Source: Aureicoccus marinus (GTDB lineage: Bacteria > Bacteroidota > Bacteroidia > Flavobacteriales > Flavobacteriaceae). From it: 64,000 nucleotides of DNA. Position 1 is the first letter of the stretch, and each line of letters opens with the position of its first letter. The position numbers and the translations under genes are program-made. The notes under the pieces are model-generated. The model made no database searches. It saw only the letters and a program-made list of their open reading frames with translations, and had not been told where the DNA came from. This document shows, in pieces, positions 36,610 through 55,726 of the stretch. The DNA lies in the NCBI RefSeq assembly GCF_002954325.1, contig NZ_MQVX01000001.1, forward strand, positions 1,191,107-1,255,106, written 5' to 3'.

Positions 36610-38844
36610 CTAGAAGCGCAGACTCACCTGCCCTCTCAAGAAGAAAGGGGCTCCGGGAGTAAAGTGAATTTCTTCCACGGATTGAGTTTCGAAGCTCAGC
36701 AAACTCTCGGTAGCAAACTGGGTTTCGTTCCAGTCTACATCAAATAAGTTTTCTACAATCAATCCAAATGTCCAAGGCCCGTGGTTGTAGTTGACATTCA
36801 AATCGGTTACAAAATACCCTTCAGCCACGATGGAGTTGTCTTCATTTGCAGGACGATCGTCCACCCAGCGGTAACGCAATCCTCCAGAGAAGTTCCCCAG
36901 GTTGCGGAAAGAAAGAGCACCCGTAGATACCCAGTCCGGAGCAAGCGGAATAAAATCCTGACCAGAAGGATCGTCTTTACTGCGTGCGCGTGCATAGTTC
37001 AGGTTGGAATTGAAGTACAACCAATCGGTGATCTGGTAACGAAGTCCCAAATCAAATCCATAACGACGGGTACGGCCCGATGGCTCTACAATAGCTTCAT
37101 CTCCAACGTAAACGAACTCCTGCTCCAAATCAAGACCCCATAGAGCGGCATCCACGATCAGGTCATTTCCGATACGCAAAAGTGTTCCTACGTCAACTCC
37201 AAAAGCTCCAGGCAAGGTTTCCAAACCATTTTGTGCAACAACCACTCGGGCGTCGTTGGAGTGGAATCCAAAACCGGACTTCACATAAAACTGGGTGGCC
37301 TCATTAGGAGCATAGACGACGTTCAGCTTTGGTGCAACAAACACATCACTTTCGCTGCGAGCGTCATAAACCGGGCTCAAGAAATTGGTGTGATCAAATC
37401 GGAAGTAATCAAAACGTAATCCGGGGTTGATGGTCCAATTATCGGTCTTGTAAGTCGCTCCTACAAATCCGTATCCGTTGAGTTCATCGGTATCTCCAAA
37501 AGAAAGGCGGCTCAACAGCTCACGACGGTTACGCGTACGCGATAACTCCACATCGTTCACATCGTCATAACGGAATCCCAATCCGGCATCCCAGACCAAT
37601 TCGTTATCACTGTCTTCGAAGTGCTGCGCGAATTCGTACTTAGTCTCTGCCCCCATGATGGTTCGGTTTTCTTTCTGCTTGATTTGGTCTCCGTTAATAG
37701 GATCATTCAAGAAGAAGGTGAAGTTCGAAAACAGCTCAAATCCGTATCGGCTGATGTAGGCTTTGGAAGTCACACGCTGGTGAGGCCCCAGGTCGCGTTT
37801 GTGCTGTAAGAGCACATTGGAACGGCTGGTCTGCCCTCCTTCTGTGTCATCAATCGCACCAAAACGCGAGATCAAGCCTTGCTCAACTGCACGTACCGGA
37901 ATCTGCCCGGAGGCATCCCACTTGCTTTGGAAGTGCGAAACGGTTAAAGTCAGTTCCTGATCGTCCAGGTTATTGAAGTTGTAACGCCCCATCACATTGA
38001 AGCGATTGAAATTCTGAGGAGACTCAAAGAATCCGTCAGAAAGCATCATTTCGGTAGCGATATAAGCATGTTGCTTATCCCCGTCCAAAAGACGCAGCAT
38101 GTTTACGTTTCGGATGGTATTAAAATCCCCAACCTCCAATAAAACACGGTTGTTCTTAAGACGCTTCTTCGTTTGAAGATCTAAGTAACCCGCGGTGTTG
38201 AAGTTTCCTTTGTTGGTGTAGTAGGGACCTTTTCCGAAGTCGATGTTCTCAATGGTTTCCGGAATAATAAAGTGGGAATCCGAATACCCTTGACCGTGCG
38301 CGTGCGATGGCAAGTTGATCGGCAGTCCGTCTACCGATAAAGTAATATCGGTTCCGTGGTCGATGTCAAATCCTCTCAAAAAGATCTGTTCCGCCTTACC
38401 TCCACCTGCATGCTGACCGATAATCAAACCCGGTACCCGCTGAAACAATTCCTGAGCTGATCGCACAGGGTTGTTTTGAATATCGACGTTGATGATATCA
38501 GAAAGTACATTGACCTTGGACAAGAGAACCACCTGATCCAAATTCACGGCAGAGGTGGTCATCACGATCTCAAGATTCGTGTCCAGGTCACTGGGTTCAA
38601 TTTTTCGTTCCAAACGTTCGAACCCCAAGCTTTGGAAAAAAAGAACATCTCCTTCGTCGACATTTTCTAACTCAAAGTATCCAGAAAGGTTGGTGTAGGT
38701 ATAGCGTCCGTTAGAGGTATTGTATACCCCTACATCGGCAAGGGCCTCGCCGCTGTCACTGACAACACGCCCTTTTATTTCATGAGCTTGCAGCCCAAAT
38801 ACGACGCAAAGCGTCATGCAAACAAATGCGTAAAAAGTTTTCAT
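36610..38844 (-). CDS. TonB-dependent outer-membrane receptor
   Basis: The 744-residue receptor has a signal peptide (AFVCMTLCVVFGLQAHE), a carboxypeptidase-regulatory-like domain (residues about 22-105, IKGRVVSDSGEALADVGVYN), a plug with RSAQELFQRVPGLIIGQHAG and FLRGFDIDHGTDITLSVDG, and a 22-strand barrel ending RGQVSLRF with the C-terminal Phe. A His-rich plug stretch, INLPSHAHGQGYSDSHFIIP, could contact metal. It is the last gene of the minus-strand block that begins at the cyclodeaminase-like gene, separated by 91 bases from the His-rich small protein. This points to uptake of a metal or metallophore, but the ligand is inferred from context only. Confidence 0.9.
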   Translation of the reverse strand: MKTFYAFVCMTLCVVFGLQAHEIKGRVVSDSGEALADVGVYNTSNGRYTYTNLSGYFELENVDEGDVLFFQSLGFERLERKIEPSDLDTNLEIVMTTSAVNLDQVVLLSKVNVLSDIINVDIQNNPVRSAQELFQRVPGLIIGQHAGGGKAEQIFLRGFDIDHGTDITLSVDGLPINLPSHAHGQGYSDSHFIIPETIENIDFGKGPYYTNKGNFNTAGYLDLQTKKRLKNNRVLLEVGDFNTIRNVNMLRLLDGDKQHAYIATEMMLSDGFFESPQNFNRFNVMGRYNFNNLDDQELTLTVSHFQSKWDASGQIPVRAVEQGLISRFGAIDDTEGGQTSRSNVLLQHKRDLGPHQRVTSKAYISRYGFELFSNFTFFLNDPINGDQIKQKENRTIMGAETKYEFAQHFEDSDNELVWDAGLGFRYDDVNDVELSRTRNRRELLSRLSFGDTDELNGYGFVGATYKTDNWTINPGLRFDYFRFDHTNFLSPVYDARSESDVFVAPKLNVVYAPNEATQFYVKSGFGFHSNDARVVVAQNGLETLPGAFGVDVGTLLRIGNDLIVDAALWGLDLEQEFVYVGDEAIVEPSGRTRRYGFDLGLRYQITDWLYFNSNLNYARARSKDDPSGQDFIPLAPDWVSTGALSFRNLGNFSGGLRYRWVDDRPANEDNSIVAEGYFVTDLNVNYNHGPWTFGLIVENLFDVDWNETQFATESLLSFETQSVEEIHFTPGAPFFLRGQVSLRF

Positions 38845-38935: not shown

Positions 38936-39397
38936 TCAGGAGTATTGCTTGGGTGGGCGCAACAAAGGAACCCGGAAAGGATCCCGGAGGGAGGAAATTT
39001 GTTGATGGTCTTTTGACACTTCTCCCAATCGGAAAAGATCGAGTGGAAAAGCCTGATGGGTTTGCAGGTGTTGATCGAGAATGATCAGGTTGATTTGATA
39101 GGCAATTTGTTGGTCTTCCGGTTTCTCCTCGTATTGATCAAAAAAGTCCTGTGCGAGATGAACCACCCGATGGGCTTTGGAAGCGGTTTGTCTTGAGTGC
39201 TGTTCCCACTCATAGTTTTGGTGATCCCCGTTATGGCTCAAAATAAGTTGCGGTGGTTGAAACTCATGGGCCAAAAAGTGACTCCAGTGCAGGAGACTCG
39301 TGCCACTTAGCGCCAAGCCATAAAGTAGGGCCAGAACCACAAGAGTTCTCTGCGAATTGGCCTTTGCCTTTTGGTATGTGGTCTTTCTTGTCTTCAC
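38936..39397 (-). CDS. Small His-rich single-helix membrane or secreted protein of unknown function
   Basis: The 153-residue protein has one N-terminal hydrophobic helix (RTLVVLALLYGLALSGTSLL) and an outside region rich in His (HWSHFLAHEF, LSHNGDHQNYEWEQHSRQ, KAHRVVHLAQ), ending RVPLLRPPKQYS. It starts 3 bases after the NRPS 1 stop codon and precedes the TonB receptor, so all three are in one transcription unit. Position and composition suggest metal binding in the periplasm, which is inference. No named family is recognised. Confidence 0.7.
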   Translation of the reverse strand: MKTRKTTYQKAKANSQRTLVVLALLYGLALSGTSLLHWSHFLAHEFQPPQLILSHNGDHQNYEWEQHSRQTASKAHRVVHLAQDFFDQYEEKPEDQQIAYQINLIILDQHLQTHQAFPLDLFRLGEVSKDHQQISSLRDPFRVPLLRPPKQYS

Positions 39398-39400
39398 CCG

Positions 39401-42400
39401 TTACGAGTTCTCTTCTTCTAATAGGGTTCGCATATGGGTTTCGAGGGCTTCCGCATAAGACTCGATGGTCGGAAACTCAAAGACCCAAGCCAAGGGGAGT
39501 TCAGTCCCTAGGTCTTCATTGAGTTGAGCAGTGACCCGAATGGCGGCCAAAGAATGCCCTCCCAGTTGAATAAAGTTGGACTCAATTCCAGGGCTTTCGA
39601 CCCGCAATACCTTTTGCCAGATCTCTTGAATCAAGGCTTGAATATCATTTTCGGGCTGTTTAGCATGGGCCTGTTCTTCTCCTTCTGTATGGTAAGCCGA
39701 AAGGAGCTCTTTACGGTCTACCTTACCACGGCTGGTCAGCGGAATTTCTTCAACCTGAATGACATCATTGGGAACCATATAGTCCGGCAGAACCTCTCTG
39801 AGTTGAGCCCAAACTTTTTCCTTATTCAGATTGGTTTTTCCGGTGTAAAAGGCAAGCAGTTTGGCATTGGATTCCTGTGCTTCGTGATCGACATACCCAA
39901 TTTCGTCCAGCATCCGCTCGACTTCGGTCACATCGATGGCTTCGTTGATTTCGTCCAGACTTTCGTCCCGATTCTTATGGCCCAGGCGGACGTCCCAGCT
40001 GTAGGGGAAAGCATAATTGCTGTAGCCTTTTTTCTTTTTGTGCACGTGTATTCCCGCCTGGTTGATCAAACAGTTAGTTGATCGACCGGTATCGGTGGGT
40101 CTTTCCCAACCGATCTCCGTTCTAAGGAACTGGAGCATTTGGGTTAAGGAGACGTGGCTGTAGCGATAAAAGTCGACGTACTCTACTTTTTCAAAAGTAC
40201 TGGCCTCACGGAACATGCTTACATCCAAACAACTCTTAACCGCATCCTCTTCCTGATGGTAGAGTTTGCGCGCTTCTAAAATGATTTTATCAATAGAGTC
40301 TGTGCTGTTTTCGGTATGCCAGAATAACTCTTCAGTCAATCGGGTTTCAAAAAATTGCCCACGAGAAAGGCCGGTAACGATAAAAGGAATGTCCTTTTCG
40401 AGCGCTATTTGGGTACTGAGGGTGTAGATAGTTTTGAAACAACCGTTGCACACATTTTGATGGCGGTGTAGGCTGTCAACAAAAATGGTGTTCATGTGCG
40501 GCGTGCTGCCGTAGACATGATCCACCCCAAGCTGCTTGACAATCTTTTGAATATTAGCTTTGGCCTGATCAGAAATGTAGCCGTTGTCTAAGGTAAAGGC
40601 CAAGACCCGAAGTCCCATCCGAACGAGTCGTGCCAAGACATAGGTACTGTCTTTTCCTCCACTGAGCAGGGCCAAACAATCGTAATGTGAAGAGCGACCT
40701 TGCTTGCTGGTTAATAAACGCACCAGGTCATCCTCTGTTTTGAAGTACTGGTCCACTTTAATTTCGTAACCTTCAAAGGCACGGCAGAGGTGACATACCC
40801 CCTCTTCATCAAAATCCGCTTCCGGATAATTGGAGGGCAAACCACAATTGCTGCAGTGTGTATCGGCTTCTTTTGCTACAACCTCCTCATTACTTTCTCC
40901 CTGATCATAAACGATCGCAACCTCATCAAGTCCTTCCTGCTTGCGAAGAGCGGATTTGATTTCGCCCAACTCTATTCTAAAGCCATTGCGTTTGATCTGC
41001 TCGTCTCTGCGGCCGAGGTAGATCAAATCTCCATCGGAGTTGACACGCGCAAAGTCTCCTGTTTTATAAAGACGCAAGCCCGGGTAATGAGCGATTTCTA
41101 CAAAGCTTTCTGCCGTGCGATCCGCTCGCTTCCAATAACCCTGAGCCAGATTAGCCCCATAGAGGTACAACTGACCTACCAATCCATGGACTACCTCCAC
41201 ACCGGCTTCATCCAATAAGAGGTAACCACCATAAGGGACCGATTCACCAATCGGAGTAGATCCTTCCCGGTGCTTTTCAGGAGAAAATTCCCCGACAATA
41301 CAGCCAACAGTCGCTTCTGTTGGGCCGTACTCATTGTAAATACGGTGCACACCGGCTTGAAACAGGCGTACGGATAATTCATTCTTGAGATCTTCTCCTC
41401 CCAGAATACAGCTTTCGATTTCTGGATTTACCCCACCTTGAGAAAGCCACAATTGAAGGTGAGCCGGGGTTAATTTTACGGTGTTGATCTCTTGGTAATT
41501 CTTTAATTCCAGCACAGCCAAATCGGGTCCGCTCCCTTTCTGTCCGATGACAACAACCTTCCCTCCTGTCGCCAAAGGAGTCAATAGACTGGTTAAGGTT
41601 AAATCAAAACCGATGGAGGTAAAAAATGGCATGCACAGGCTCTCATTTCCGGGACGGTATTTTTCGGCAGCCCATTGCACATAGTGGGACAAGGCTCCTT
41701 GATTCACGACGACCCCTTTGGGTTCACCGGTCGAACCGGAGGTGTATAAGATATAAGCCGCCTGATCTGGATTCGGGAAGGATGGGTTTCCTAAGCAAGC
41801 AGACGAGCTAAAAATTTGGTTAGAAAGAGAGAGCAAGCGGTGCGGCGTAGACCTCCAAAGGCCTGCTTCCTCTTGTTCAGCAGAACACAAAATGGCAGAC
41901 ACTTCTGCATTCTCGCCAATAAACTGCAAACGCTGTGCTCCCTGAGCCGGATCAAGCGGCACAAAGACATAGCCTTCTCGAAGACAGGTCCATACCGCAG
42001 CGACATAAGCGCTTGATCTTTCGGAACACAAGCCTACCCGATCTCCTGGCTGCAATCCTGCTCTTTTCAATTGGGAACTCAATTCTGCAAGAGCGGCATT
42101 GAACTGGGCGTAAGTGAACTGCTGATCCCCTTCAACCAAGGCGATCTGATCTGCCTGTCTCAGGAAGTGATTTACTTTTTCACCCAATACGGCAGGGACC
42201 TCCTGAACTTGTGGCATATCGCCGGCTGGCAGCGAGGAATCCTCAAGCAGAACCTCACTAAAGGCTTGCTCTACATTGTCCAAAAAGGCGTCTAAAAGTT
42301 TTAAATAATGGCGACCCACCCGGTTTCGTTGGTCTTCCTTAAAAAGGGCTTCATTCAGATCGAACCAAAGTTCTGGCTCGCCAGACTCCCCCATTTTTGT

Positions 42401-43516
42401 GTAGTGGCAGCGAATACCATGTGCGGGATCACTTTGACCAGAATGCAACCAGTTCGTTCTGACCTTCCAGTCGGTGGGGTTGTCAAAACCGGCTCCGATA
42501 AAATTGAAAATGGCCTGGTTGGAGCGGTTGGCTTCTGCTGAAGAAGAACCCGGAAGAGCGTGCTTAAAAAACTCGGCTCCTTCCGACTTGATCTGAGCAT
42601 AGAGTTCCTTAAAGCTTAGACCGCTGGCTACTTCCGTGACAAAAGGGAAAAATTCAATCCACAACCCTGGACTTTTCCTGGCTTTAAGACCGCTTCGGTG
42701 GTGCACCGGAATCCCCAGCTGTACCTTTTCTGACTGGGTAATGCGACTTAAAAAAGCAACATACACGGTCAAAAGAATAGTAAAGACACCCAAATCCTCA
42801 CTAAAGGAAGAAAAAGTGGGCTCTTTTAAAAGGGTTTTGAGTTTAATCAGACGCTCTTTTCCGATCGCATACCTCAATTGTTGGGATTCCAGGGTATTCT
42901 TGGATAATTCCCCATAAAAACGCTGTGGAATATGCGCTGCACTTTGCTGAACCCAATATTGGGTGTCGAGGGAAGCAAGGGATTCATGCCCGTATTCCGT
43001 CAAGCTTTGTTCAAAAGGAATCAAATCCAAAGAAGGGAATACACCAGACTCTTGAAATCCGAAATAAAGCGTCCAAAGAGCCTTCCAGATAAAGGTCGAC
43101 GAAGTCGCATCCTCCACCGAATGGTGCATATTGAGGTAAAAAACATAGTGTTCTTCCCCCAAAACATAGACACAGGCATCAAAAACAGTCTCTTCGATTG
43201 GCAAAGGCTGGGTCTTTCTATGATCGACCAAGGCTTTCCACTCGTTTGGTGCACATTCAACCCAGTCCAGACCCCGGGTTGGCTCTGGTCGTACCTCCTG
43301 ATACGGATGATTCTCTTGAATTCCGAAAACCAAACGAAAAACACTAAGCTGTCGCTGCAATTCCGCGAAACTCCGGTCAAAGAGTTCCCGATCCAGGCTG
43401 TTCTCCAACTCAAAGGTGTTGACCACATTGAGCACACAGGCTTCTGGGTACAACTGATGAGCCAGCCACATCTGGGTCTGGGTTGCCGTTAGTTGATATC
43501 GTTTGTTTTCGTTCAA
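39401..43516 (-). CDS. Nonribosomal peptide synthetase C-A-T with a PP-loop ATP pyrophosphatase inserted in the A domain
   Basis: The 1371-residue single module has a condensation domain (1-430; HHSVEDA at 131-137) and an adenylation core (450-870; YTSGSTGEPKG 591-601). The A domain's C-terminal part resumes at 1216 with TSRGKVDRKEL (catalytic Lys1265), and a carrier domain follows with LGGHSL (Ser1322). Between motif A8 (RNGFRIELGEIKSA) and the resumption lie about 335 extra residues (40879-39872): a zinc ribbon CSNC(888-891)/CHLC(908-911), the PP-loop LLSGGKDSTYV (SGGKDS 952-957) and CNGC(1023-1026). It resembles N-acetyl-sugar amidotransferases (WbpG type). The pocket residues read D-L-T-K-I-G-E-V-G-K, close to the established Asn code DLTKLGEVGK. 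It lies 6 bases after the carrier-protein gene. Confidence 0.95.
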   Translation of the reverse strand: MNENKRYQLTATQTQMWLAHQLYPEACVLNVVNTFELENSLDRELFDRSFAELQRQLSVFRLVFGIQENHPYQEVRPEPTRGLDWVECAPNEWKALVDHRKTQPLPIEETVFDACVYVLGEEHYVFYLNMHHSVEDATSSTFIWKALWTLYFGFQESGVFPSLDLIPFEQSLTEYGHESLASLDTQYWVQQSAAHIPQRFYGELSKNTLESQQLRYAIGKERLIKLKTLLKEPTFSSFSEDLGVFTILLTVYVAFLSRITQSEKVQLGIPVHHRSGLKARKSPGLWIEFFPFVTEVASGLSFKELYAQIKSEGAEFFKHALPGSSSAEANRSNQAIFNFIGAGFDNPTDWKVRTNWLHSGQSDPAHGIRCHYTKMGESGEPELWFDLNEALFKEDQRNRVGRHYLKLLDAFLDNVEQAFSEVLLEDSSLPAGDMPQVQEVPAVLGEKVNHFLRQADQIALVEGDQQFTYAQFNAALAELSSQLKRAGLQPGDRVGLCSERSSAYVAAVWTCLREGYVFVPLDPAQGAQRLQFIGENAEVSAILCSAEQEEAGLWRSTPHRLLSLSNQIFSSSACLGNPSFPNPDQAAYILYTSGSTGEPKGVVVNQGALSHYVQWAAEKYRPGNESLCMPFFTSIGFDLTLTSLLTPLATGGKVVVIGQKGSGPDLAVLELKNYQEINTVKLTPAHLQLWLSQGGVNPEIESCILGGEDLKNELSVRLFQAGVHRIYNEYGPTEATVGCIVGEFSPEKHREGSTPIGESVPYGGYLLLDEAGVEVVHGLVGQLYLYGANLAQGYWKRADRTAESFVEIAHYPGLRLYKTGDFARVNSDGDLIYLGRRDEQIKRNGFRIELGEIKSALRKQEGLDEVAIVYDQGESNEEVVAKEADTHCSNCGLPSNYPEADFDEEGVCHLCRAFEGYEIKVDQYFKTEDDLVRLLTSKQGRSSHYDCLALLSGGKDSTYVLARLVRMGLRVLAFTLDNGYISDQAKANIQKIVKQLGVDHVYGSTPHMNTIFVDSLHRHQNVCNGCFKTIYTLSTQIALEKDIPFIVTGLSRGQFFETRLTEELFWHTENSTDSIDKIILEARKLYHQEEDAVKSCLDVSMFREASTFEKVEYVDFYRYSHVSLTQMLQFLRTEIGWERPTDTGRSTNCLINQAGIHVHKKKKGYSNYAFPYSWDVRLGHKNRDESLDEINEAIDVTEVERMLDEIGYVDHEAQESNAKLLAFYTGKTNLNKEKVWAQLREVLPDYMVPNDVIQVEEIPLTSRGKVDRKELLSAYHTEGEEQAHAKQPENDIQALIQEIWQKVLRVESPGIESNFIQLGGHSLAAIRVTAQLNEDLGTELPLAWVFEFPTIESYAEALETHMRTLLEEENS

Positions 43517-43522
43517 GCTCTT

Positions 43523-43759
43523 CTATTTCTTGCTGTTGACGTACTTCTCTATGGTCTCTACACTCATAAAGTTCTCCATGGTCAGGTCCTCAGTGGGCAC
43601 CTTGATGCCATAGTTGTTTTCAATAAAACCGACCAGGCGCATCATGCCCAGGGAATCGAGTAATCCACTTCCCAGTAGATCTTCGTCCGTTTCTAAGGTG
43701 CCGAAATCCGGATCGTTAATCAGATCCTCGGTGATATAGCGGCTGAGTTCTTCAATCAT
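43523..43759 (-). CDS. Stand-alone acyl/peptidyl carrier protein
   Basis: The 78-residue carrier protein starts at the ATG at 43759; the frame continues upstream but only as antisense of the adenylation gene. The phosphopantetheine serine is in LLGSGLLDSLGMMRLVGFIE. Length and acidic helices are typical of discrete carriers that hold an aminoacyl group for oxidation. Its start overlaps the stop of the stand-alone adenylation gene (ATGA) and its stop lies 6 bases before NRPS 1, so it should be made in step with both. It is the likely substrate carrier for the acyl-CoA dehydrogenase. Confidence 0.93.
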   Translation of the reverse strand: MIEELSRYITEDLINDPDFGTLETDEDLLGSGLLDSLGMMRLVGFIENNYGIKVPTEDLTMENFMSVETIEKYVNSKK

Positions 43760-45363
43760 GACTCTTGTTTGTGTACGTTTAGTTGTTCTATCCAATCTTT
43801 GAGTTGTCCTCGTATAATTTTTCCGGAACTGGTTCTCGGAAAGCTCTCCAATTCGACTAGGCGATCCGGAAAGGCGTAAGACGGCAATCGTCTTCTGCAC
43901 TGCTCAATGAGCTCTTCTTCTTTAAATTCTTCTTCCCGCCGACGTTGGTAGGTCAGGACAATGATTCTATTTTCTCCTTCCAGGGTACTGAAACAAGCGG
44001 CGTCCTGCACTCCATCTAACTCCAAAGCCGCACTTTCAATTTCGGCCAAATCAATTCGGTAGCCCCGCTTTTTTATCTGGGCATCAATTCGGCCCTTAAA
44101 AACCAATTGACCATGGGCATTGAAGTACACCAAGTCTCCGGTTTTGTAGTATTGTTTGCGAATCCCTGAAGGGCTGTTGGCTTCAAAAAAGGGAGAAAGA
44201 TTTCGGCTTTCTTGTCTCCAATAGCCTTGCATGGCTGTTTCGGCATGTATACAGAGCTCCCCTTCCTGCACTCCCTCGGTCTTCCCCGTATCCGGATCCA
44301 GAAGCAAGAAATCAGCATCGGCCCAAACCTGGCCTAAAGGAATGGGCTCCTCCCCTTGAGGCGGTTCTGAGAAATTAAAATAGGTGCATTGGTTGACCTC
44401 TGCAGGCCCGTAAACGTTCGAGAAGGTCGAGTTGGGCCAGAGCTCCATCAATCGACGCACATATTTGGGCGCGAAGGGCTCACCCCCGTAGAGCACCCAT
44501 TTCATAGGCACTTGACTCAGGCTTTCTTCAATGCCAGGCTGTAAGAGTTGAATCAAGGCCAAGGGAACCGCATACCAAAAGGTAATCTGATCCCTCACCA
44601 GGACTTGGGCTAAACTCGCCGGCATCTTGGTTTCGCCTTCCGAGAGCACCACCGTGTGTACCCCACAAAAAGGAGCGGTGAAATAGGCGAAGGTGCAAAT
44701 ATCAAAATGCAAAGGGGCATGACTGGCATACCGATCTTCAGGCCCCGGACGGTAGAGTCGGGCCGATCGTTCGGCATAGGCCAAACCACTTCGGTGGGTA
44801 TGCATAATCCCTTTGGGTTGGCCAGTAGAGCCAGAGGTATACATGATATAAGCCAGCTGGCTGGCGCTGAATTTTAATACCGGCGCGTCGGTCTCGGTGG
44901 CCATCAGTTCATCCCAGGACAGGCAGGAAGTGTGGTTCTTTTGTTCACTCAGTTTTTCGGGTCCTATCCCTATTAATTTGATCGCAAATGGCAAGACTCT
45001 ATCGAGAGACCTCAACTTGCGAAATTGGGCAGGTGTTGTCAATACGATACGGATATTGGCATCTTCAATAATCTGGGCCATTCGCTCCACCGAACTGGTT
45101 GGATCAAGAGGCACAAAAGCACCACCGGCTCGAAGTATTCCGTAAACCGAAACAAAGCTTTCGAGAGAACGCTCTGCTAGAATACCGATGCGATTTTCTT
45201 TTTGGACTCCCTCGGCGAGCAGAGTGGCTGCCAACTGTCCGGATTGCTTCTCAAGTTCGGTATAGGTCAATCGCTTCTCCCCCATGGAATAGGCGGTATG
45301 GTCAGGAAAGCGCTTGGCTCCCTGCTCCACAATTTCACCCAAATGGAGAAGCGTCGAATTCAT
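43756..45363 (-). CDS. Stand-alone amino-acid adenylation enzyme, probably proline-activating (PltF/CloN4-like context)
   Basis: The 535-residue enzyme activates an amino acid as its adenylate and loads the discrete carrier protein. Motifs are YIMYTSGSTGQPKGIMHTH, HAPLHFDICTFAYF, FSNVYGPAEVNQCTYF, YKTGDLVYFNAHGQL and, at the end, FPRTSSGKIIRGQL with the catalytic Lys. The pocket reads roughly D-I-F-Y-V-Y-V-Q-C-K, which does not match a code I know with certainty. Proline is inferred from the neighbours: a carrier, an acyl-CoA dehydrogenase and a cyclodeaminase-like enzyme that could make proline. The start overlaps the dehydrogenase stop (TAATG). Confidence 0.85.
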   Translation of the reverse strand: MNSTLLHLGEIVEQGAKRFPDHTAYSMGEKRLTYTELEKQSGQLAATLLAEGVQKENRIGILAERSLESFVSVYGILRAGGAFVPLDPTSSVERMAQIIEDANIRIVLTTPAQFRKLRSLDRVLPFAIKLIGIGPEKLSEQKNHTSCLSWDELMATETDAPVLKFSASQLAYIMYTSGSTGQPKGIMHTHRSGLAYAERSARLYRPGPEDRYASHAPLHFDICTFAYFTAPFCGVHTVVLSEGETKMPASLAQVLVRDQITFWYAVPLALIQLLQPGIEESLSQVPMKWVLYGGEPFAPKYVRRLMELWPNSTFSNVYGPAEVNQCTYFNFSEPPQGEEPIPLGQVWADADFLLLDPDTGKTEGVQEGELCIHAETAMQGYWRQESRNLSPFFEANSPSGIRKQYYKTGDLVYFNAHGQLVFKGRIDAQIKKRGYRIDLAEIESAALELDGVQDAACFSTLEGENRIIVLTYQRRREEEFKEEELIEQCRRRLPSYAFPDRLVELESFPRTSSGKIIRGQLKDWIEQLNVHKQES

Positions 45364-46514
45364 TACAGGCCGAGAAGTTTAGAAATAATATTGCGCTGGA
45401 TATCGGAAGTACCGGCATAAATAACTCCACCTACAGCATCACGCAGATTGCGCTCCACTTCAAATTCACTGATGTATCCGGGAGCACCGTGGTTACGAAT
45501 GGCGTCCAGACTGGATTCGATAAAGCTTTCACTCATGTAGAGCTTGAGTAAGGCTGACTCCATCATGGAGGTTTCGCCCTTGTTTTTCATCCAGGCCACT
45601 TTGTAAAGCAAGAGTTTTGAAAGCTCCAGCCTTAGCTTCATATCGGCAACGCGATTAGAAACCGACTGAAATTTTCCGATGGCTTGTCCATACTGCTTTC
45701 GCTTGCGCACATAAGCCACCGTCTCTTCTAACTGATACTGCATGGTACCCAGCTGTCCGGCTAAAATGGTACAGCGGTCGTGCTCCAAAGAGCTGTTGGT
45801 AATGGACCATCCGGCTCCTTCCGGACCTAGGCGGTTTTCTTCAGGCACAAAACAGTCTTCAAAAAACAAATCGCCAAAGGGTACCGTACGTAGGCCCATC
45901 TTCGGACGGTTCTCGCCCTGGGTAAATCCCTTCATTCCCTTTTCAACCATAAAGGCGGTAATCCCCCAGGCGCCTTTGTTTGGATCGGTAGTGGCAAAAA
46001 CCAAAATGACATCGCCCACCGGGCCAAAAGTAATGTAGTGTTTATGTCCATTGAGAAGGTAACCCCCGTCGACCTTGGTCGCGGTGGTCTTCATGCTGTA
46101 GACGTCGGATCCGGCATCGGGCTCCGACAAGGCGTGACAGCCCATCCATTCCCCCGCCGCCATACGAGGCAGGTATTTTTTCTTCTGCTCCTCCGTACCA
46201 AATAAAACGATGGGGTATTCCACCGTCCAGAGTTGGGCATTGATTCCAAAGGCCAAACCGTTATCGCGACAGGCGTATCCCAGACCTTCCATGGCCAGAC
46301 AAGCCGTGATCAGGTCAATTTCGTCTCCTGTTCCCCCGTATTCTTTGGGGATGGCTAGGCCTTGCAAACCGAATTCGGCGCATTTCATCCAAGCCTCTTT
46401 CGAAAAAACGCTATTCAAATCGGCTTCCAGATAAGACTCGGGGAAGGCCTCCTTGGCGAAAGCGATAACCTTTTCTTTATAGGCCAGCTGTTCTTGACTA
46501 AAACTGTAATCCAT
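45363..46514 (-). CDS. Acyl-CoA dehydrogenase-like flavoenzyme, probably acting on a carrier-bound aminoacyl group
   Basis: The 383-residue protein has the full acyl-CoA dehydrogenase fold (LAIPKEYGGTGDEIDL, MGCHALSEPDAGSDV with the FAD site, KHYITFGPVGDVILVFA, RKRKQYGQAIGKFQSV, VIYAGTSDIQRNIISKLL). In pyrrole pathways PltE/RedW-type members oxidise carrier-bound proline. At the two usual positions of the catalytic Glu I see Ala in YAGTSDIQ and, in the isovaleryl-CoA dehydrogenase position, SLEHDR, where Asp aligns to the base and Glu is two residues earlier. So either a shifted base is used or the substrate differs. It lies between the cyclodeaminase-like and adenylation genes and overlaps the latter. 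Confidence 0.9.
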   Translation of the reverse strand: MDYSFSQEQLAYKEKVIAFAKEAFPESYLEADLNSVFSKEAWMKCAEFGLQGLAIPKEYGGTGDEIDLITACLAMEGLGYACRDNGLAFGINAQLWTVEYPIVLFGTEEQKKKYLPRMAAGEWMGCHALSEPDAGSDVYSMKTTATKVDGGYLLNGHKHYITFGPVGDVILVFATTDPNKGAWGITAFMVEKGMKGFTQGENRPKMGLRTVPFGDLFFEDCFVPEENRLGPEGAGWSITNSSLEHDRCTILAGQLGTMQYQLEETVAYVRKRKQYGQAIGKFQSVSNRVADMKLRLELSKLLLYKVAWMKNKGETSMMESALLKLYMSESFIESSLDAIRNHGAPGYISEFEVERNLRDAVGGVIYAGTSDIQRNIISKLLGL

Positions 46515-46532: not shown

Positions 46533-47603
46533 TTAGACCTGAACGGGTTTGCTTATAAAATGATAGGGATTCTTGACATCGGAAGACACATTCTCCAGGT
46601 GAATGCCCTGTCCTACGCCTAAAGCGCGTCCGAGTTCTTCCATGAGGTTGGCCACAATTTGATCTTCATAGGCCCATCCCGTTGAGTCGAAAACACTCAT
46701 CCCTTTTTGGATGGTTTTCCAGGTGATGGGTTGCGAGATCAACTGCTTTAAATCAGGACCAATTTCAGTATCCTGAAGCTGCTGACACTCCCCTTCTATT
46801 TTTGCTTGTTCTCTAAAGTCCGGTACGACCGTGGACTCCAGGAGTAAGTTTCGAGGCAATTCCAACTTCCCCGGAAAATCAGACCCTACGGCATTGATAT
46901 GCAAATGAGGCTGGCAATTGTAGTGTTCAAATAGCGGGCCTTCATTGACACCGATGGAGGTGGCGGTACAGAGAATATCGACCGTATCGACAATGGTTTC
47001 TATATCACTGCGAATGAGATTCACATCCAATTCCAGACCCTCTATTCGGTCCTGGAAGTTATCCATCGCCTTGGGGTCGATATCGTAGATCCAAATACTT
47101 TTAAGTGGAAAGAGACGGCTCAGGGCGTGCAATTGAACCACGGCTTGAGCCCCACATCCGATCAACCCAAGCTTTTCACTACCGGGTTTAGCCATCGCAC
47201 GGGAAGCCACAGCAGAGGCCGCAGCGGTGCGCAAAGCAGTGGGCAGAACCCCATCCATGATGGTTTTAAGGTGTCCTGTCTTGGTATCGTAAGTCGTGAT
47301 ATTCGATAAGATCGTCGGAAGATCAAAGAGGTCCGGATTATGGGGATGGTAGCCCACGACCTTGAGGACGACTTCCTTTCCTTTTTCGTGAACTGGCATA
47401 AACTCCACAAGCCCCTCGGGAGCAGCCTGGTAATTAAAACCGGTACGGATTGGAATTTCCAGAGAACTCGAATCAAAGTTCTCTAGCCCCCTAGTCAAGC
47501 GTTCTATGAGCAGATCTATAAACCGATTGGGACCCGTTTGAATGAGTATTTCTTCCAGATCTGATGCGGTAAGCAACCAGGTCTTGGTGGAGTATTTCTT
47601 CAT
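46533..47603 (-). CDS. Ornithine cyclodeaminase/mu-crystallin family protein
   Basis: The 356-residue NAD(P)-dependent enzyme belongs to the family including ornithine cyclodeaminase (ornithine to proline), SbnB and related dehydrogenases. Visible parts are the N-terminal IRTGFNYQAAPEGLVEFMP with substrate Arg, GYHPHNPDLFDLPT, ALRTAAASAVASRAMA and the Rossmann loop KLGLIGCGAQAVVQLHALS. Ornithine cyclodeaminase is the preferred role because the next three genes form a proline-oxidation-type cassette. SbnB-type synthesis of diaminopropionate would need SbnA, which is absent here. It is the first gene of the minus-strand operon, 18 bases before the dehydrogenase. Confidence 0.88.
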   Translation of the reverse strand: MKKYSTKTWLLTASDLEEILIQTGPNRFIDLLIERLTRGLENFDSSSLEIPIRTGFNYQAAPEGLVEFMPVHEKGKEVVLKVVGYHPHNPDLFDLPTILSNITTYDTKTGHLKTIMDGVLPTALRTAAASAVASRAMAKPGSEKLGLIGCGAQAVVQLHALSRLFPLKSIWIYDIDPKAMDNFQDRIEGLELDVNLIRSDIETIVDTVDILCTATSIGVNEGPLFEHYNCQPHLHINAVGSDFPGKLELPRNLLLESTVVPDFREQAKIEGECQQLQDTEIGPDLKQLISQPITWKTIQKGMSVFDSTGWAYEDQIVANLMEELGRALGVGQGIHLENVSSDVKNPYHFISKPVQV

Positions 47604-47714
47604 CTGATAAGCGGCAATTTTGTCTTAAGATACATTTTCTCTTTCAAGAGTTGCGTTTAACGAGAAAAATCTCGACGAAGGAAGAGAAAGATGGGGTATA
47701 ATTCCAAAATGCCT

Positions 47715-47744
47715 GTAATCACTGGGATTACGCTTAATCGTAAT
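47715..47744. promoter_or_regulatory. Overlapping inverted repeats in the divergent NRPS promoter region
   Basis: GTAATC-ACTGG-GATTAC (47715-47731) and ATTACG-CTTAAT-CGTAAT (47727-47744) are exact inverted repeats that share bases, roughly in the middle of the 229-base gap between the divergent cyclodeaminase-like gene and the hupE-like gene. Such paired palindromes suggest a dimeric regulator site that could co-ordinate both operons. No full TAnnTTTG box was found in this gap. Confidence 0.45.
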
Positions 47745-47832
47745 TTTCTGCACTAGAGTCGATTAATCCCGTTTAGTTAAACAGCTTTCTGTAATTTACC
47801 CCCTGTTTGACCGATCAGACTAAAAAATTGCT

Positions 47833-49092
47833 ATGAAAACACAGATAAAAAGAGCGCTTTTTGTGCTGGCTTTTTTGGCCGTACAAATCATCAACGCCCA
47901 CATTCCCAACCAGAGTTATGTCTACCTCCGCATTTACGAAAAGGATGGTATTGAAGGTCGTTACGAGATCAATATTCGCGAGATCAACAAGCTGCTCGAC
48001 TTAGACTTAGATACCCGTTCATCTTTGGACGAGCTGAGACCTTATATTCCACAGCTTCAAGCTTATATGTTGCAAAACACTTCCTTTAGTTCAGCAGTTG
48101 GAGATCACCAGATCAAGTTTAAGGAGTCCGATATGTTTTACCTGGGAACAGGGAACTACCTGCTGATGAAGTTTGATTTGACCAACACCAAAGAACTGCC
48201 AGATGATATGGATATGAGTTATTCCGCCCTCTTTGACAAGGACCCCACGCACAAAGGATTTTTGATTATCGAATACAACTGGAAAGCCGGTATTATAAAC
48301 AACGAAGCCAATATCCTTCTTGATTTTGGACCCGGGGATCTCAGCGGGGAGTTCAGCCTGACCGAAGTATCGCTTTGGAAAGGTTTTTGGGCGATGGTCA
48401 AACAAGGGGTTTGGCACATCTGGATTGGTCTGGACCACATCCTCTTTTTATTGGCTCTGATTTTACCAGCGGTCGTGAGACGCTCTCGAGAAGAAACCGA
48501 AACCGCCGTTCCTCTTCCCACATGGATGAAAGGGAACGCCGTTATCGATTGGATTGGTGTTCCTCAATTCGGGAATGCCTTTTGGTACATCCTGAAAGTG
48601 GTAACCTTTTTTACCATTGCACACACCATTACCCTTACCCTAGCCACCTTAGAATGGGTCAATTTAAATGCTCAGATTGTTGAATCCATCATCGCCTTTT
48701 CCATTGGGTTGGCGGCCTTTCATAACATCCGTCCCATCTTTAAAGGGCGCGACTGGGTGATTGCCTTTGTTTTTGGACTTTTCCACGGCTTTGGTTTTGC
48801 CAGTGTACTCAGTGACCTGGGGCTTACCGGAGAATTTCTGAGTCTTTCGTTACTCGGTTTCAACATTGGGGTGGAATTAGGACAGATCGTAATCATCGCC
48901 TTGTTCTTCCCCGTACTCTTTTTACTCCGACAGAAAAAATACTACTCCAAGATTTTGGTGTATGGGTCGATAACGCTCATGGTCATCTCACTCTATTGGG
49001 TGATTGAAAGGGTTTTTGATGTGAATTTAGGAGTGGAAGACTTCCTCAAATCCATTATTATCTCGATCTTGAAAGGGATTGGACTGAGATAA
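47833..49092 (+). CDS. HupE/UreJ-type membrane transporter with periplasmic N-terminal domain
   Basis: The 419-residue protein has a signal peptide (ALFVLAFLAVQIINAH), a beta-rich extracytoplasmic domain of about 170 residues and then six membrane helices of the HupE/UreJ-2 family. The helices carry HIWIGLDHILFLLALILPAV, FTIAHTITLTLATL, FSIGLAAFHNIRP and FGLFHGFGFASVL, whose His/Asp residues are the family's likely metal site. Members are predicted Ni/Co or related metal permeases, but no hydrogenase or urease is in the window. It is 22 bases upstream of NRPS 2 on the same strand, so it is part of the peptide locus. Confidence 0.9.
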   Translation: MKTQIKRALFVLAFLAVQIINAHIPNQSYVYLRIYEKDGIEGRYEINIREINKLLDLDLDTRSSLDELRPYIPQLQAYMLQNTSFSSAVGDHQIKFKESDMFYLGTGNYLLMKFDLTNTKELPDDMDMSYSALFDKDPTHKGFLIIEYNWKAGIINNEANILLDFGPGDLSGEFSLTEVSLWKGFWAMVKQGVWHIWIGLDHILFLLALILPAVVRRSREETETAVPLPTWMKGNAVIDWIGVPQFGNAFWYILKVVTFFTIAHTITLTLATLEWVNLNAQIVESIIAFSIGLAAFHNIRPIFKGRDWVIAFVFGLFHGFGFASVLSDLGLTGEFLSLSLLGFNIGVELGQIVIIALFFPVLFLLRQKKYYSKILVYGSITLMVISLYWVIERVFDVNLGVEDFLKSIIISILKGIGLR

Positions 49093-49114: not shown

Positions 49115-52100
49115 ATGTCTCGCGACTCCAATGATTTGTTGGGCCGGTTTAAGAACCGGTCCATAAATACGGGTGCCAACCTGAGCAAGGCCCCTGAAGG
49201 GATGCCTGTACCTCTGACCGCCGGCCAAAAAAGGCTGTGGTTCTACCAACAGGCGCATCCCAAATCCGCTGCATACAACTACGGCATTCGCTATTTTGGA
49301 GAAGGTAAATTCAATCTGGAACGCTTTCGACAGGCCTGGGAAGCCCTCGCTGTAGAATACACTATCCTGCGAAGCTATTACCCCCTGGTCAACAACAAGC
49401 CTGAGATCAAAATAACAGACGAGATTCCTCCTCTGGTCTATAAAGATCTAACGCAGGAGGCAACCCCAGAGGAAGTAGCGAAAAAAGAGGAATACGCTCT
49501 TTTACACCATAATTACGAGCTCGGTCAAGCGCATCTATGCTCTTTCCTCGTCCTAAAGACAGGACCTGAAAAATACCGCTTCACTTTTGCGACCCACCAC
49601 ATCTTGGTAGACGAATGGTCTGTAGGGGGCATCATTCAAAACTTGGCAGACTACTACGCTAATGGTTTTAAGGCAGAGCGAGAAATCATTGATTTTAGAG
49701 ATGTCGCCTGGAGTTTTCATCAAAAAGACGAAAGTCGACACCTGCCCTATTGGACAGACTATATCCGAGGTGCTCAAGCCGGGAGTGGTTTGGTACCGGA
49801 TTTTCAGAGGGGGTCGAGTCCAACCGGAACGGGTGCTCGATGGGCTTTCTCCCTACCAACCAGCCTTTCTAAACAAAGTAAAAAGCAAGCCCAAGAACTG
49901 GGTCTGACCCTTTTTGAATGGTGTTTTGGTCTTTTTGGGTTACACCTGCACCAACTGGGCGGGAACAGCGATTTCATCGTTGCCAGTCCAGCGACCTTAC
50001 GCCAGGACCTGGCCTTACAAAAACACTGGGGTTATTTAATCGAGACGGTCCTTTACCGCTTCCGATTCGATCAAAACAAGACCCTGAAAGAGTTGCTCTC
50101 TGAGCTCAGTGCAGACCACCGAAAGGCACAAGGCAAGCTGCCCTTGCCCCTTGAAAACCTCGTCAGCGAACAGCAGGCATCACGGGACCTCAGTCGGAAT
50201 CCCCTCTTTGAGACCATGTTCGTTTTTAACGAATCCCAGGAAACTCCTTCCTCGGGGAAGATTTTGTCTGGTCTGCGGAAGAGTCATCTGCCTTGGAAAC
50301 GGCAAAATTTGATCTGACTCTTTTTAGCCGTTGGGAAAACGAGCAACTGCATTTTAGTTGGGAGTATAACCCTGCGCTCTTTTCAGTGGACAGTATACAG
50401 CTCATGGCACAAGGTTTTCTGCAACTTTTTAAATCGGTTGCCGAGAAAGGGGTTGAACAATGGGCTCACAGCTACGGAAAGGAACAAGTTGAAAACGCTG
50501 AAACGCCATGGAAAAATCTCTGGAGCGGTATCAACAGTATCCCGGAACGCTTTAAGCAGATGGTGGAGCAGTACCCGGAAAAAACCGCTTTGAGTTTTGG
50601 CGCCGAACAGTGGACCTATAAAACCCTGGATCAAAAGAGTACCGCGTGGGCTCTGGCCTTGCTAAAGCTGAATCCGCAACAAAAACCTATTGCCCTGCAC
50701 CTGGACCGTTCCCTTGAACAAATAGCCGCCCTTATGGCTGTGCTCAAAAGTGGTGTTCCGTACCTTGCATTGGACCCGGAATATCCTGGGGGTCGTTTGA
50801 GCTATATGCTCGAAAACAGCGAATGCGCTTTGGTTATCAGTTCCGACAAAAGCAACTTCACAGATACCGGAGCTAGGGTCATTGAGCTGAAAGAGCTGGA
50901 TGTGGTTTCAACAGAAGAGATGCCCAAGAGCTTACCGCCGATCACGGGCGAACAAGCCGCTTATATCATATACACTTCAGGGAGTAGTGGTAAACCAAAA
51001 GGGGTGGTGATCAGTCACTCCAACCTACTCTACTCTACAGCAGCCCGACTCGCGTTCTACCCGGACCAGCCTGGTGTTTTTTATTGGACCTCTTCGCTTT
51101 CTTTTGACAGTTCCAAAGCCGGTTTGTACTGGACCCTTTTACAAGGAGGTCATTTGCGCATCGCTCCAACACGAAGCGAGCAAGACATGGAGCAGATGGC
51201 AAAAGAAATTGAATCCCATCAGGTCACCCATTTATTGACCTTACCAAGCTTGTACAAAAAGCTTCTGCAATTGGCACCCAAAAACACCTTGTCTTCGCTC
51301 ACAACGACGATGGTCGCCGGAGAAAGCTGCGAGCTGGAGGTTATCGAAATCCATCACGACCGACTCAAGAACTGCAAGCTCTACAACGAATACGGCCCCA
51401 GTGAAGGAACCGTTTGGGCCACGGCAAAAGAATTGCATCCTAAACAAGACGGAGGACGTGTTTCGATCGGAAAAGCCATTCCCGGAACCCAGGTTTATGT
51501 ACTGGATCGCTACGGTCAATTGGCTTCTCCACTTCAAATTGGCGAGCTTTGTATTTCGGGACCCGGGCTGGCGGAAGGCTACCTGCATGCTCCTGAATTA
51601 ACGGCCGAAAAATTCATTCCGAATCCCTGGGGAAAAGACGACTTTAAAAAGCTCTACAAGACCGGAGACCAAGCGCGATGGAACACCAAAGGAGAGCTTG
51701 AATTTTTTGGTCGAAAAGACCAACAACTAAAAATCCGTGGGCAACGCGTGGAGCTTGAAGAAATCCAATCCATACTGTCCAACCTCAAAGGAATCAGTGA
51801 AGCCTGCGTAGTCATTCATCAATCGAGCAATACCCCCTTGCTGGTCGCCTATTTTACCAGCGACTCGAAAGACTTAGAAGTAAACATCAGAGAAAAGCTG
51901 CAGAATCAGTTGCCAGCGCATATGGTGCCGAAACACCTGCTTCAGCTCGAGAAGTTTCCTCTACTGCCCAATGGGAAGGTGGACCGTCAAAGCCTGCGTG
52001 GCCGACCCCTGCAGATCCAAACAACAGAAGGCACTCTTCCCGAGACCGAAATACAAAAACAATTGGCTGTACTTTTTGAAGAAGTAAGTACGAAAAGACC

Positions 52101-53055
52101 GGTTTATGTGGAAGACGACTACTTTGATCTCGGTGGTGATTCCATAAAAAGTATAGAATTGATTGCCAAGGCGCGCAGCTTAGGAATGAACATCACCCCC
52201 AATATCCTCTTTAAATACCCGACCATCCAAGGTCTGAGTCATTACCTGGAAGCTGAACAAGAAGAGGCCTGGGACTATCTAGTCAAATTCCACGACCAAG
52301 GCACCAAGCGCCCCCTTTTTTGTATTCACGCTGGTGGAGGCCATGTATTCTTCTACAAAGAACTTCACAAATTCATCAAAAACAGACCGGTTTACGCTCT
52401 ACAGCCGTCAGGAGCTTATGAGGATCAAGAGCTGCAACCCACGATCAATGCCATGGCCCTTGACTATATAAAGAGTATGAAAAAGGTTCAGGCTCAGGGA
52501 CCTTATACCATTTTGGTGTATTGCTTTAGTGCCGTAGTCGGGAATGAAATATGCCGTCTTCTTCGAGAAGAAAGTCAGCAGATCGATGTCATTGTGGTCG
52601 ATACCATGACCTCACCTGCGAATTTGAATAGTCCCAAAAGACTAAAAATGAGGATGCAGGCCTTTGGCTCTCGTCTTCTCCGCTCTCCAAAGCGAACATT
52701 GTATTACTGGACCATTGCACGTTATTCCTTACTCCGAATGCGCTATCAGGAAAAAGCAGCCAAGGATGAGGAAGCTCGAAAACTGGAACGTCTTCGAAGA
52801 CACCTCATGCAACTCAGTCAGGGGCACCCCTTTTCCGAAATGGAAGAAGATATCTACCTCCTCTTGACCAAGAAGGATCACCGTGCCGTCAACCGAGAAA
52901 CGGTGGCTTCCTGGCAAAGAACGACCTCCGGAAAGGTCCGGGTGTTGCGCGTGCCTGGAGAACACATGACCCTTTTTGATGATGGTTTTTTGGAGACCAC
53001 CTCGGAAGCCATTCAGGAAAGTTTGAACCAGATAGAAAACGCCACCGAGGCCTAA
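49115..53055 (+). CDS. Nonribosomal peptide synthetase C-A-T-TE, interrupted by one frameshift
   Basis: Rejoining the two frames gives about 1313 residues. The condensation domain carries ATHHILVDEWSVGG (49115 to about 50400). The adenylation domain follows to about 51990, with YIIYTSGSSGKPKGVV, FDSSKAGLYW, NEYGPSEGTVW, YKTGDQARW and LLPNGKVDRQSL. A carrier is next with FDLGGDSIKS (Ser codon 52141), then a type I thioesterase (FCIHAGGGHVFFYKEL, Ser codon 52528 in YCFSAVVG, His in PGEHMTLFDDG). The pocket reads D-S-A-T-M-A-E-V-W-K, not a code I can assign. The frame breaks at GGGG 50254-50257; one more G joins SSG to EDFVWSAEESSALETAKFD. This is the releasing module. Confidence 0.92.
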
Positions 53056-55220: not shown

Positions 55221-55726
55221 ATGGAAAATAACTACCCTAAAAAGCAACTTCAAGTCAACGGAAAAGGCTATACCGTACAAGTCGATGGCCGCATGCCCCT
55301 CTTATGGGTACTGCGTGACGAGCTAGGACTTTCCGGCACCAAGTACGGCTGTGGGATCGGGCAATGTGGAGCTTGTACCGTACTTGAAGATGGTCAAGCC
55401 ATTCGGGCATGCCTCACCCCGGTATCTCAGGTCAAGGGAGAAATCACCACCATCGAAGGCTTGGGGTGCCTGATGCTCTTCATTTGGTACAAGAAGCCTG
55501 GATCGAAACCCAGGTCGCCCAATGTGGATACTGCCAATCGGGCCAAATCCTTTCGGCCCACACCCTATTACAAACTAATCCGGAACCCACCGATGAAGAT
55601 ATTGATTCGTCCATGGTGGGCAACCTATGCCGCTGCGGCACCTACCCGAGAATTCGCGAAGCCATTCACTTGGCTGCCCAAAAAATAAAAAACCAGGCGA
55701 CTCCATGGAAAGAAGAAAATTCCTGA
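55221..55726 (+). CDS. 2Fe-2S subunit of a molybdenum hydroxylase (IorA/XdhS type), interrupted by one frameshift
   Basis: The small iron-sulfur subunit should be about 168 residues. The first frame carries the plant-type ferredoxin cluster [14 protein letters not shown]. The second frame carries the other cluster, [17 protein letters not shown] and [16 protein letters not shown]. They join at GGGG 55463-55466, where one more G gives [16 protein letters not shown]. The two clusters pass electrons from the molybdenum centre. There is no FAD subunit, so a cytochrome probably accepts the electrons, as in isoquinoline 1-oxidoreductase relatives. Its last 22 bases overlap the large-subunit gene. 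Confidence 0.85.

What the first reader, a model, noticed from the sequence alone, without database searches (positions are those of the whole stretch)
39872..40879. PP-loop ATP pyrophosphatase domain embedded inside an asparagine-type NRPS adenylation domain
About 335 residues, with a CxxC/CxxC zinc ribbon, SGGKDS PP-loop and CNGC pair, sit between adenylation motif A8 and the C-terminal subdomain. This is where methyltransferase domains are known to interrupt A domains. The insert resembles WbpG-type amidotransferases, which activate an amide and turn it into an amidine. PP-loop enzymes also make nitriles (QueC) and thio groups (for example CtaC of closthioamide). The host A domain reads DLTKIGEVGK, close to the Asn code, so the natural target would be the Asn carboxamide or a neighbouring backbone amide. 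I know of no described interrupted A domain of this kind, though I cannot search.
Basis: partly seen in the sequence, partly recalled or inferred. Interest (0 to 1): 0.95.

Follow-up and report, generated by a model that had tools for sequence, protein, structure and literature searches.

The report
AMDH-type insert in asparagine NRPS domain
A peptide-making enzyme carries a second ATP-using enzyme inside its asparagine-loading part; this arrangement is already known from the antibiotics albicidin and cystobactamid, where it turns asparagine into a nitrile or rearranges it, but here it sits in a widely conserved operon that looks like metal uptake and carries a likely iron-sulfur site that could explain how it works.

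Summary
The ~327-residue PP-loop insert lies between A8 and A9 of an adenylation domain with the Asn code DLTKIGEVGK. It is not a new kind of domain. AlbIV (albicidin) and CysH (cystobactamid) carry an ATP-binding domain of 342 aa / 38 kDa inside an Asn A domain. In CysH this 'AMDH' domain dehydrates carrier-bound Asn to beta-cyanoalanine or isomerises it to isoasparagine (PMC7966384, PMC12283262). The amidine reading is not favoured. New here: (1) all 34 homologues checked carry an invariant CxxC + C triad. Its CxxC aligns with the [4Fe-4S] cysteines of TtcA and LarE, and the triad spacing is close to CtaC. Most sugar amidotransferases lack it, but one subgroup has it. It could explain the unexplained brown colour of CysH. 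(2) The synthetase lies in a syntenic locus of 27 flavobacteria with a TonB receptor, a HupE/UreJ metal permease, a His-rich protein and a second NRPS with a His-type code; relatives occur in Rhodobacteraceae. I predict a pyrrolyl- (or other acyl-) cyanoalanyl/isoasparaginyl-histidine metallophore.

The parts
39401..43516 (-). NRPS1: C-A-[AMDH-type insert]-A_sub-T, 1371 aa, TTG start
42227..43504 (-). Condensation domain with HHxxxD (HHSVED), residues about 5-430; motif present in 28 of 28 homologues
40862..42160 (-). Adenylation core, residues 453-885, A3-A8 intact, code DLTKIGEVGK
   Evidence: code assignment PMC12283262
39881..40861 (-). PP-loop (adenine nucleotide alpha hydrolase) insert, residues about 886-1212, proposed AMDH-type domain
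   Evidence: architecture as in AlbIV/CysH
40784..40855 (-). N-terminal CxxC..CxxC (C888, C891, C908, C911), zinc-ribbon-like as in LpNASAT
40646..40663 (-). SGGKDS PP-loop motif (residues 952-957), invariant
40439..40450 (-). C1023-N-G-C1026: first two cysteines of the predicted [4Fe-4S] triad
40070..40072 (-). C1149 (in RSTNCLIN): third cysteine of the predicted [4Fe-4S] triad
39692..39880 (-). Rest of the A C-terminal subdomain with A9 and A10 (catalytic Lys1265)
39443..39634 (-). Carrier (T) domain, LGGHSL
43523..43759 (-). Stand-alone carrier protein, conserved in 21 of 28 loci
43756..45363 (-). Starter adenylation protein, related to L-prolyl-carrier-protein ligases
45363..46514 (-). Acyl-CoA-dehydrogenase-like prolyl-carrier dehydrogenase (PigA/RedW type): pyrrole starter
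46533..47603 (-). Ornithine cyclodeaminase family (proline supply)
38936..39397 (-). About 150-aa protein with N-terminal hydrophobic segment and conserved His/Asp residues, conserved in 26 of 28 loci
36610..38844 (-). TonB-dependent receptor, about 60% identical across loci, in 27 of 28 loci
47833..49092 (+). HupE/UreJ-family metal permease with H-x5-DH motif, in 25 of 28 loci including Ruegeria
49115..50317 (+). Second NRPS, condensation part
50293..53055 (+). Second NRPS, A-T-TE; His-type code family (DSALIAEVW in most homologues)
   Evidence: code assignment PMC12283262
53060..53788 (+). 4'-phosphopantetheinyl transferase

Best explanation
The insert is an AMDH-type domain (amide dehydratase/aminomutase), the kind found inside the Asn adenylation domains of AlbIV and CysH. 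The host A domain loads L-Asn onto the adjacent carrier domain. The insert binds ATP at SGGKDS and activates the side-chain carboxamide oxygen of carrier-bound Asn. Loss of the activated oxygen gives beta-cyano-L-alanine; under some conditions rearrangement to isoasparagine is possible. I infer that C1023, C1026 and C1149 hold a [4Fe-4S] cluster with one open iron, as in TtcA/TtuA/LarE/CtaC, which takes part in the reaction. The unit is placed between an acyl starter (pyrrole-2-carboxylate in this genome) and histidine by the second NRPS. The product is probably a secreted metal chelator re-imported by the TonB receptor and handled by the HupE/UreJ permease. Shown: architecture, motif conservation, synteny. 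Inferred: the chemistry here, the cluster, the product and the metal.
For: Same architecture, size, superfamily and host code as AlbIV/CysH: a 342-aa insertion of the adenosine nucleotide alpha-hydrolase superfamily in the A domain of albicidin, code DLTKIGEVGK; [quoted passage not shown] CysH alone dehydrates carrier-bound Asn (-18) and the reaction is lost without the domain. Here the code is DLT/S-KIGE-V/I-GK in 28 of 28. No hydroxylase is among the recurrent neighbour families (with annotations); with CysH, absence of CysJ allows the nitrile to form. CysH is dark brown with no assigned cluster motif. This family carries CxxC+C in 34 of 34, the CxxC aligning with TtcA CSLC (hhalign 95.3%, E 2e-8) and LarE CYFC, and with mmLarE in the PDB search. 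Spacing to the third Cys (123) is close to CtaC's 127. Metallophore: conserved TonB receptor, HupE/UreJ, His-rich protein, His code, ZnuA and MacB-like ABC genes in the Ruegeria locus.
Against: No CysH or AlbIV sequence could be reached, so identity to AMDH and presence of the triad in CysH/AlbIV were not tested. No iron-sulfur cluster is shown. The triad also occurs in a sugar-amidotransferase subgroup (L064 beside HisF/HisH, L114; L117 has CWHC but its ORF ends before the third position), so it does not by itself fix the chemistry. In a published precedent (CtaC) such a triad serves sulfur insertion, not dehydration. The sequences that share the triad here include one standalone protein beside sufE/sufS. 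A nitrile is not an obvious metal ligand.
Confidence: 0.62

Rival explanations
1. Thioamide synthetase: the insert is a CtaC-like [4Fe-4S] PP-loop enzyme that replaces the amide oxygen of carrier-bound Asn (or of the acyl-Asn backbone amide) with sulfur, giving a thioamide metal ligand.
For: CxxC+C triad invariant in 34 of 34; CxxC aligns with TtcA and LarE; spacing close to CtaC (D77/S78, C154, C157, C284); a standalone triad relative sits directly before sufE and sufS; fold hits include TtuA, LarE and YcfA; thioamides bind soft metals, which would fit a metal-uptake locus.
Against: AlbIV and CysH share architecture and Asn code and make nitrile/isoasparagine, not thioamide. No sulfur-mobilising gene is conserved in the loci.
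Confidence: 0.17
2. Aminomutase outcome: the insert mainly isomerises carrier-bound Asn to isoasparagine, so the peptide runs through isoasparagine and the nitrile is a side product.
For: Shown for the CysH AMDH domain; isoasparagine linkers vanish when the domain is deleted.
Against: In vitro CysH without the hydroxylase gives the dehydrated product, and no CysJ-like gene was identified among the recurrent neighbours. Albicidin shows no isoasparagine form.
Confidence: 0.14
3. Amidine synthetase: the insert acts like WbpG/NASAT and replaces the amide oxygen with ammonia.
For: Best family is WbuX; best PDB fold match is 8wex.
Against: Below the WbuX cut-off (130.6 versus 203.2 bits); separate group on a long branch; the triad is absent from most amidotransferases; no HisH/HisF beside the NRPS in 33 loci, the one pair found lying about 12 kb away in the Roseovarius locus; CysH/AlbIV chemistry differs.
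Confidence: 0.04
4. The insert is catalytically inactive or only structural.
For: Some interrupted A domains are not biochemically characterised (general knowledge).
Against: PP-loop, zinc-ribbon and triad residues are invariant at 49-76% overall identity in two phyla.
Confidence: 0.03

Closest known systems
AMDH domain of CysH (cystobactamid NRPS, PMC7966384)
   Same: About 38-kDa domain with SGGKD ATP motif inside an Asn A domain, acting on carrier-bound Asn; homologues are all in Asn A domains
   Different: CysH is a stand-alone A-T module feeding the line through CysB. Here it is a C-A-T elongation module (dimodular in Roseovarius) in a TonB/HupE locus with a His-type partner module. CysJ, CysQ and CysB equivalents were not identified. 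Sequence not compared directly.
AlbIV insert (albicidin, PMC12283262 and PMC7966384)
   Same: 342-aa adenosine nucleotide alpha-hydrolase insertion, A-domain code DLTKIGEVGK, Asn to beta-cyanoalanine
   Different: Different pathway and product class; sequence not compared directly
CtaC thioamide synthetase (PMC6772006) and TtcA/TtuA/[4Fe-4S]-LarE
   Same: PP-loop plus CxxC...C triad; CxxC columns align with TtcA and LarE; CtaC also acts on carrier-bound substrate
   Different: Free-standing, sulfur insertion; CtaC not in an A domain
N-acetyl sugar amidotransferase (WbuX/WbpG/LpNASAT, TIGR03573, 8wex)
   Same: Overall fold and N-terminal tetracysteine zinc site; only family with a full-length profile match
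   Different: Below cut-off; separate group; triad absent from most; no HisH/HisF partner beside it; free-standing
Methyltransferase-interrupted A domains (TioS, KtzH, McyA)
   Same: Insertion between a8 and a9 of an otherwise intact A domain, acting on the carrier-bound residue
   Different: Methyltransferase rather than PP-loop insert

Membership tests
AMDH (AlbIV/CysH) | Domain of about 340 aa inserted in an A domain | tested here: met
   Insert about 886-1212 between A8 and A9
AMDH (AlbIV/CysH) | Host A domain is Asn-specific by code | tested here: met
   DLTKIGEVGK 23 of 28, one-residue variants in the other 5; code listed for Asn/Cya-3
AMDH (AlbIV/CysH) | SGGKD ATP-binding motif, adenine nucleotide alpha-hydrolase superfamily | tested here: met
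   SGGKDS invariant; PP-loop fold matches
AMDH (AlbIV/CysH) | Sequence homology to CysH/AlbIV domain | not testable with these tools
   No CysH or AlbIV genome or solved structure was reachable; 339 and 398 sampled Pseudomonadota genomes (overlapping sets) gave no other close relative
AMDH (AlbIV/CysH) | Dehydration or isomerisation of carrier-bound Asn | not testable with these tools
   Needs enzyme assay
[4Fe-4S] PP-loop enzymes (TtcA/TtuA/LarE/CtaC) | CxxC plus distant Cys | tested here: met
   34 of 34; CxxC aligned to TtcA and LarE. The third Cys was matched by spacing and context only
[4Fe-4S] PP-loop enzymes (TtcA/TtuA/LarE/CtaC) | Bound iron-sulfur cluster and sulfur transfer | not testable with these tools
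   Needs purified protein
N-acetyl sugar amidotransferase (TIGR03573) | Score above the curated cut-off | tested here: not met
   130.6 and 113.2 versus 203.2 bits
N-acetyl sugar amidotransferase (TIGR03573) | HisH/HisF ammonia partner beside the gene | tested here: not met
   None beside the NRPS in 33 loci; the Roseovarius pair lies about 12 kb away next to its own sugar amidotransferase
Metallophore NRPS locus | Dedicated TonB receptor and metal transporter conserved with the NRPS | tested here: met
   TonB 27 of 28, HupE/UreJ 25 of 28 loci
Metallophore NRPS locus | Product binds a metal; metal-responsive expression | not testable with these tools
   Needs culture experiments

The most novel reading that the evidence does not exclude
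AMDH domains are a subclass of [4Fe-4S] PP-loop enzymes: the cluster's open iron (or a cluster-bound sulfide, through a transient thioamide) drives ATP-dependent conversion of carrier-bound Asn to a nitrile. In flavobacteria and roseobacters this builds an unknown family of acyl-(modified Asn)-His metallophores with a dedicated TonB/HupE uptake route.
Probability: 0.35. Interest if true: 0.75.

Novelty: new member of a known kind. Interest (0 to 1): 0.5.

Why it matters
The mechanism of the AMDH domain is an open question: its authors saw a dark brown protein, found no CxxCxxxC cluster motif, had no structural template and could not crystallise it. A conserved CxxC+C triad shared with TtcA/LarE-type iron-sulfur enzymes gives a direct, testable answer. 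The conserved TonB/HupE/His context in about 7% of sampled Flavobacteriaceae points to an uncharacterised family of small metal-binding peptides in this family of bacteria, which could be tested by knock-out and metabolomics.

Tried and rejected
Amidine/WbpG reading: rejected as best on the triad, score, tree and missing HisH/HisF. Before finding PMC12283262 and PMC7966384 my leading idea was a CtaC-like thioamide synthetase; the AlbIV/CysH precedent moved it to rival. The triad as exclusive mark of sulfur insertion: rejected, because L064 with CWHC+C lies beside HisF/HisH. The third Cys was not covered by the hhalign blocks, so its match to TtcA/LarE rests on spacing and context. The tree places L103, L104 and LarE on long branches, so their position is not used. 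The categorisation paper by Lundy et al. 2020 on interrupted A domains is not in the library. Metal identity could not be fixed: a shared TTTTCGAT element in the divergent promoter has no known regulator.

Full report
OBSERVATION. The coordinates given hold no open frame on the + strand. On the - strand they lie inside a 1371-aa ORF, 39401-43516. Domain order is C (5-319 matched), A core (453-795 matched), PP-loop insert (about 886-1212), A C-terminal subdomain, T (1295-1358). All core motifs of the host are intact: A3, A4, A5, A7, A8, A9, A10 with Lys1265, HHxxxD in C and LGGHSL in T. The insert lies between A8 and A9, the usual place for interruptions (review PMC8949500; PMC11355689).

CONSERVATION. 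Twenty-seven of 397 Flavobacteriaceae genomes, this one included, carry the insert at 69-76% identity, always in an open frame of about 1370-1430 aa. It also occurs in another Bacteroidota family (64%), in four of 198 genomes of the Ruegeria family (49-57%), and on plasmids of Roseovarius pelagicus and Pseudohalocynthiibacter. In a Streptomyces plasmid the domain is not inserted: it is fused N-terminally to a C-like domain behind a separate A-T protein. Across 28 NRPS proteins the code reads DLTKIGEVGK (23), DLSKIGEVGK (3) or DLTKIGEIGK (2). PMC12283262 lists DLTKIGEVGK for Asn and for the beta-cyanoalanine unit of albicidin.

WHAT THE INSERT IS. The only full-length profile match is WbuX, N-acetyl sugar amidotransferase, below its cut-off (130.6 versus 203.2 bits). 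The AlphaFold model of the insert (pLDDT 84.8) matches LpNASAT 8wex first, then TtuA, YcfA and [4Fe-4S] LarE. Beyond the N-terminal tetracysteine and SGGKDS it has C1023xxC1026 and C1149, present in 34 of 34 inserts. Profile alignment puts the CxxC on TtcA's CSLC (95.3%, E 2e-8), with TGLSRGQFFETRL on LGHHRDDILETFF, and on LarE's CYFC; the PDB search does the same with mmLarE. The three-cysteine [4Fe-4S] site of these enzymes is described in PMC9283937 and PMC6772006. CtaC spacing (S78 to C154, C157 to C284) resembles the insert (S957 to C1023, C1026 to C1149). In an alignment that includes two distant standalone proteins, only D63, SGGKDS, Y76, N105, C140, C143, C266 and a few other residues stay invariant (insert numbering). 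One of these standalone proteins lies just before sufE and sufS. Most sugar amidotransferases lack the triad, and many of them lie beside HisF/HisH; exceptions are L064 (beside HisF/HisH) and L114 with CWHC+C, and L117 with CWHC and a truncated C-terminus. The tree separates the inserts from all of these by a long supported branch.

THE KNOWN FAMILY. [quoted passage not shown] PMC7966384 names the equivalent 38-kDa domain of CysH 'AMDH' (69% identical to that of AlbIV). It shows that CysH dehydrates carrier-bound Asn (-18) and does not when the domain is removed, that isoasparagine and cyanoalanine linkers disappear in vivo when it is deleted, that a SGGKD motif is conserved, that all BLAST homologues sit in Asn A domains, that CysH is dark brown, and that the mechanism is unknown. 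The present insert meets every architectural feature.

CONTEXT. In 28 loci the recurrent genes are NRPS1, a TonB receptor (27), an about 150-aa protein with conserved His (26), HupE/UreJ (25), a starter A protein (21), a stand-alone carrier protein (21), NRPS2, and in 7 loci ornithine cyclodeaminase plus a prolyl-carrier dehydrogenase. The starter A protein resembles prolyl-carrier ligases. NRPS2 codes are DSALIAEVW and close variants, listed for His in PMC12283262. The Ruegeria locus adds a ZnuA-type binding protein, a MacB-like transporter with ATPase and a DUF4198 protein. This is the anatomy of a metallophore pathway. The metal is not determined: HupE suggests Ni/Co, ZnuA suggests Zn/Mn (family knowledge).

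MECHANISM PROPOSED. Asn is adenylated and loaded in cis (motifs shown, specificity inferred from the code). The insert binds ATP and activates the side-chain amide oxygen (inferred from the superfamily). By CysH precedent, and because no hydroxylase was identified among the recurrent neighbours, water is lost to give beta-cyanoalanine, with isoasparagine as alternative. A [4Fe-4S] cluster held by the triad is predicted; its role (open-iron Lewis acid, or bound sulfide through a thioamide intermediate) is speculation. The C domain joins the pyrrolyl or other acyl starter, NRPS2 adds His and its TE releases the product (inferred).

VERDICT. The new content is the predicted iron-sulfur site, which makes the open AMDH mechanism testable, and a conserved flavobacterial/roseobacterial metal-uptake-like locus around it.

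Noticed in passing
L077:16062-20112 (Streptomyces sp. NBC_01216 plasmid): A relative of the insert (40% identity) is not inside an A domain but N-terminal to a C-like domain, behind a separate A-T protein with a non-Asn-looking code and next to asnB; beta-tyrosine and enediyne-type genes lie nearby.
   Followed up: partly
L111:9445-12158: Standalone PP-loop protein with the same SGGKDS + CxxC...C triad directly upstream of sufE and sufS: likely a sulfur-insertion enzyme of unknown substrate.
   Followed up: partly
L064, L114, L117: Subgroup of sugar-amidotransferase-like proteins with CWHC (third Cys seen in L064 and L114), one beside HisH/HisF: an unrecognised possible metal site in that family.
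   Followed up: partly
window 47604-47832 and homologous divergent promoters: TTTTCGAT occurs in 13 of 24 homologous intergenic regions (0.5 expected from shuffles), TCGATTATCGA in 4 (0 expected): candidate operator of a metal regulator.
   Followed up: partly
L100, L101 (and other long WbuX frames L118, L119, L123, L128, L138): Open frames of 600-840 aa matching WbuX; L100 begins MCGIFG like a class II glutamine amidotransferase fused to the amidotransferase domain.
   Followed up: no
window 30701-31963 (-): Class V aminotransferase/SufS-like protein about 7.4 kb from NRPS1, not conserved in most of the other loci.
   Followed up: no
window 55627-57936: Molybdopterin-binding aldehyde oxidase/xanthine dehydrogenase-like protein near the cluster.
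   Followed up: no
window 53752-55071 (-) and L001:4214-5536: EryCIII-like glycosyltransferases (26% identical) flank both the flavobacterial and the Ruegeria locus; the product might be glycosylated.
   Followed up: no
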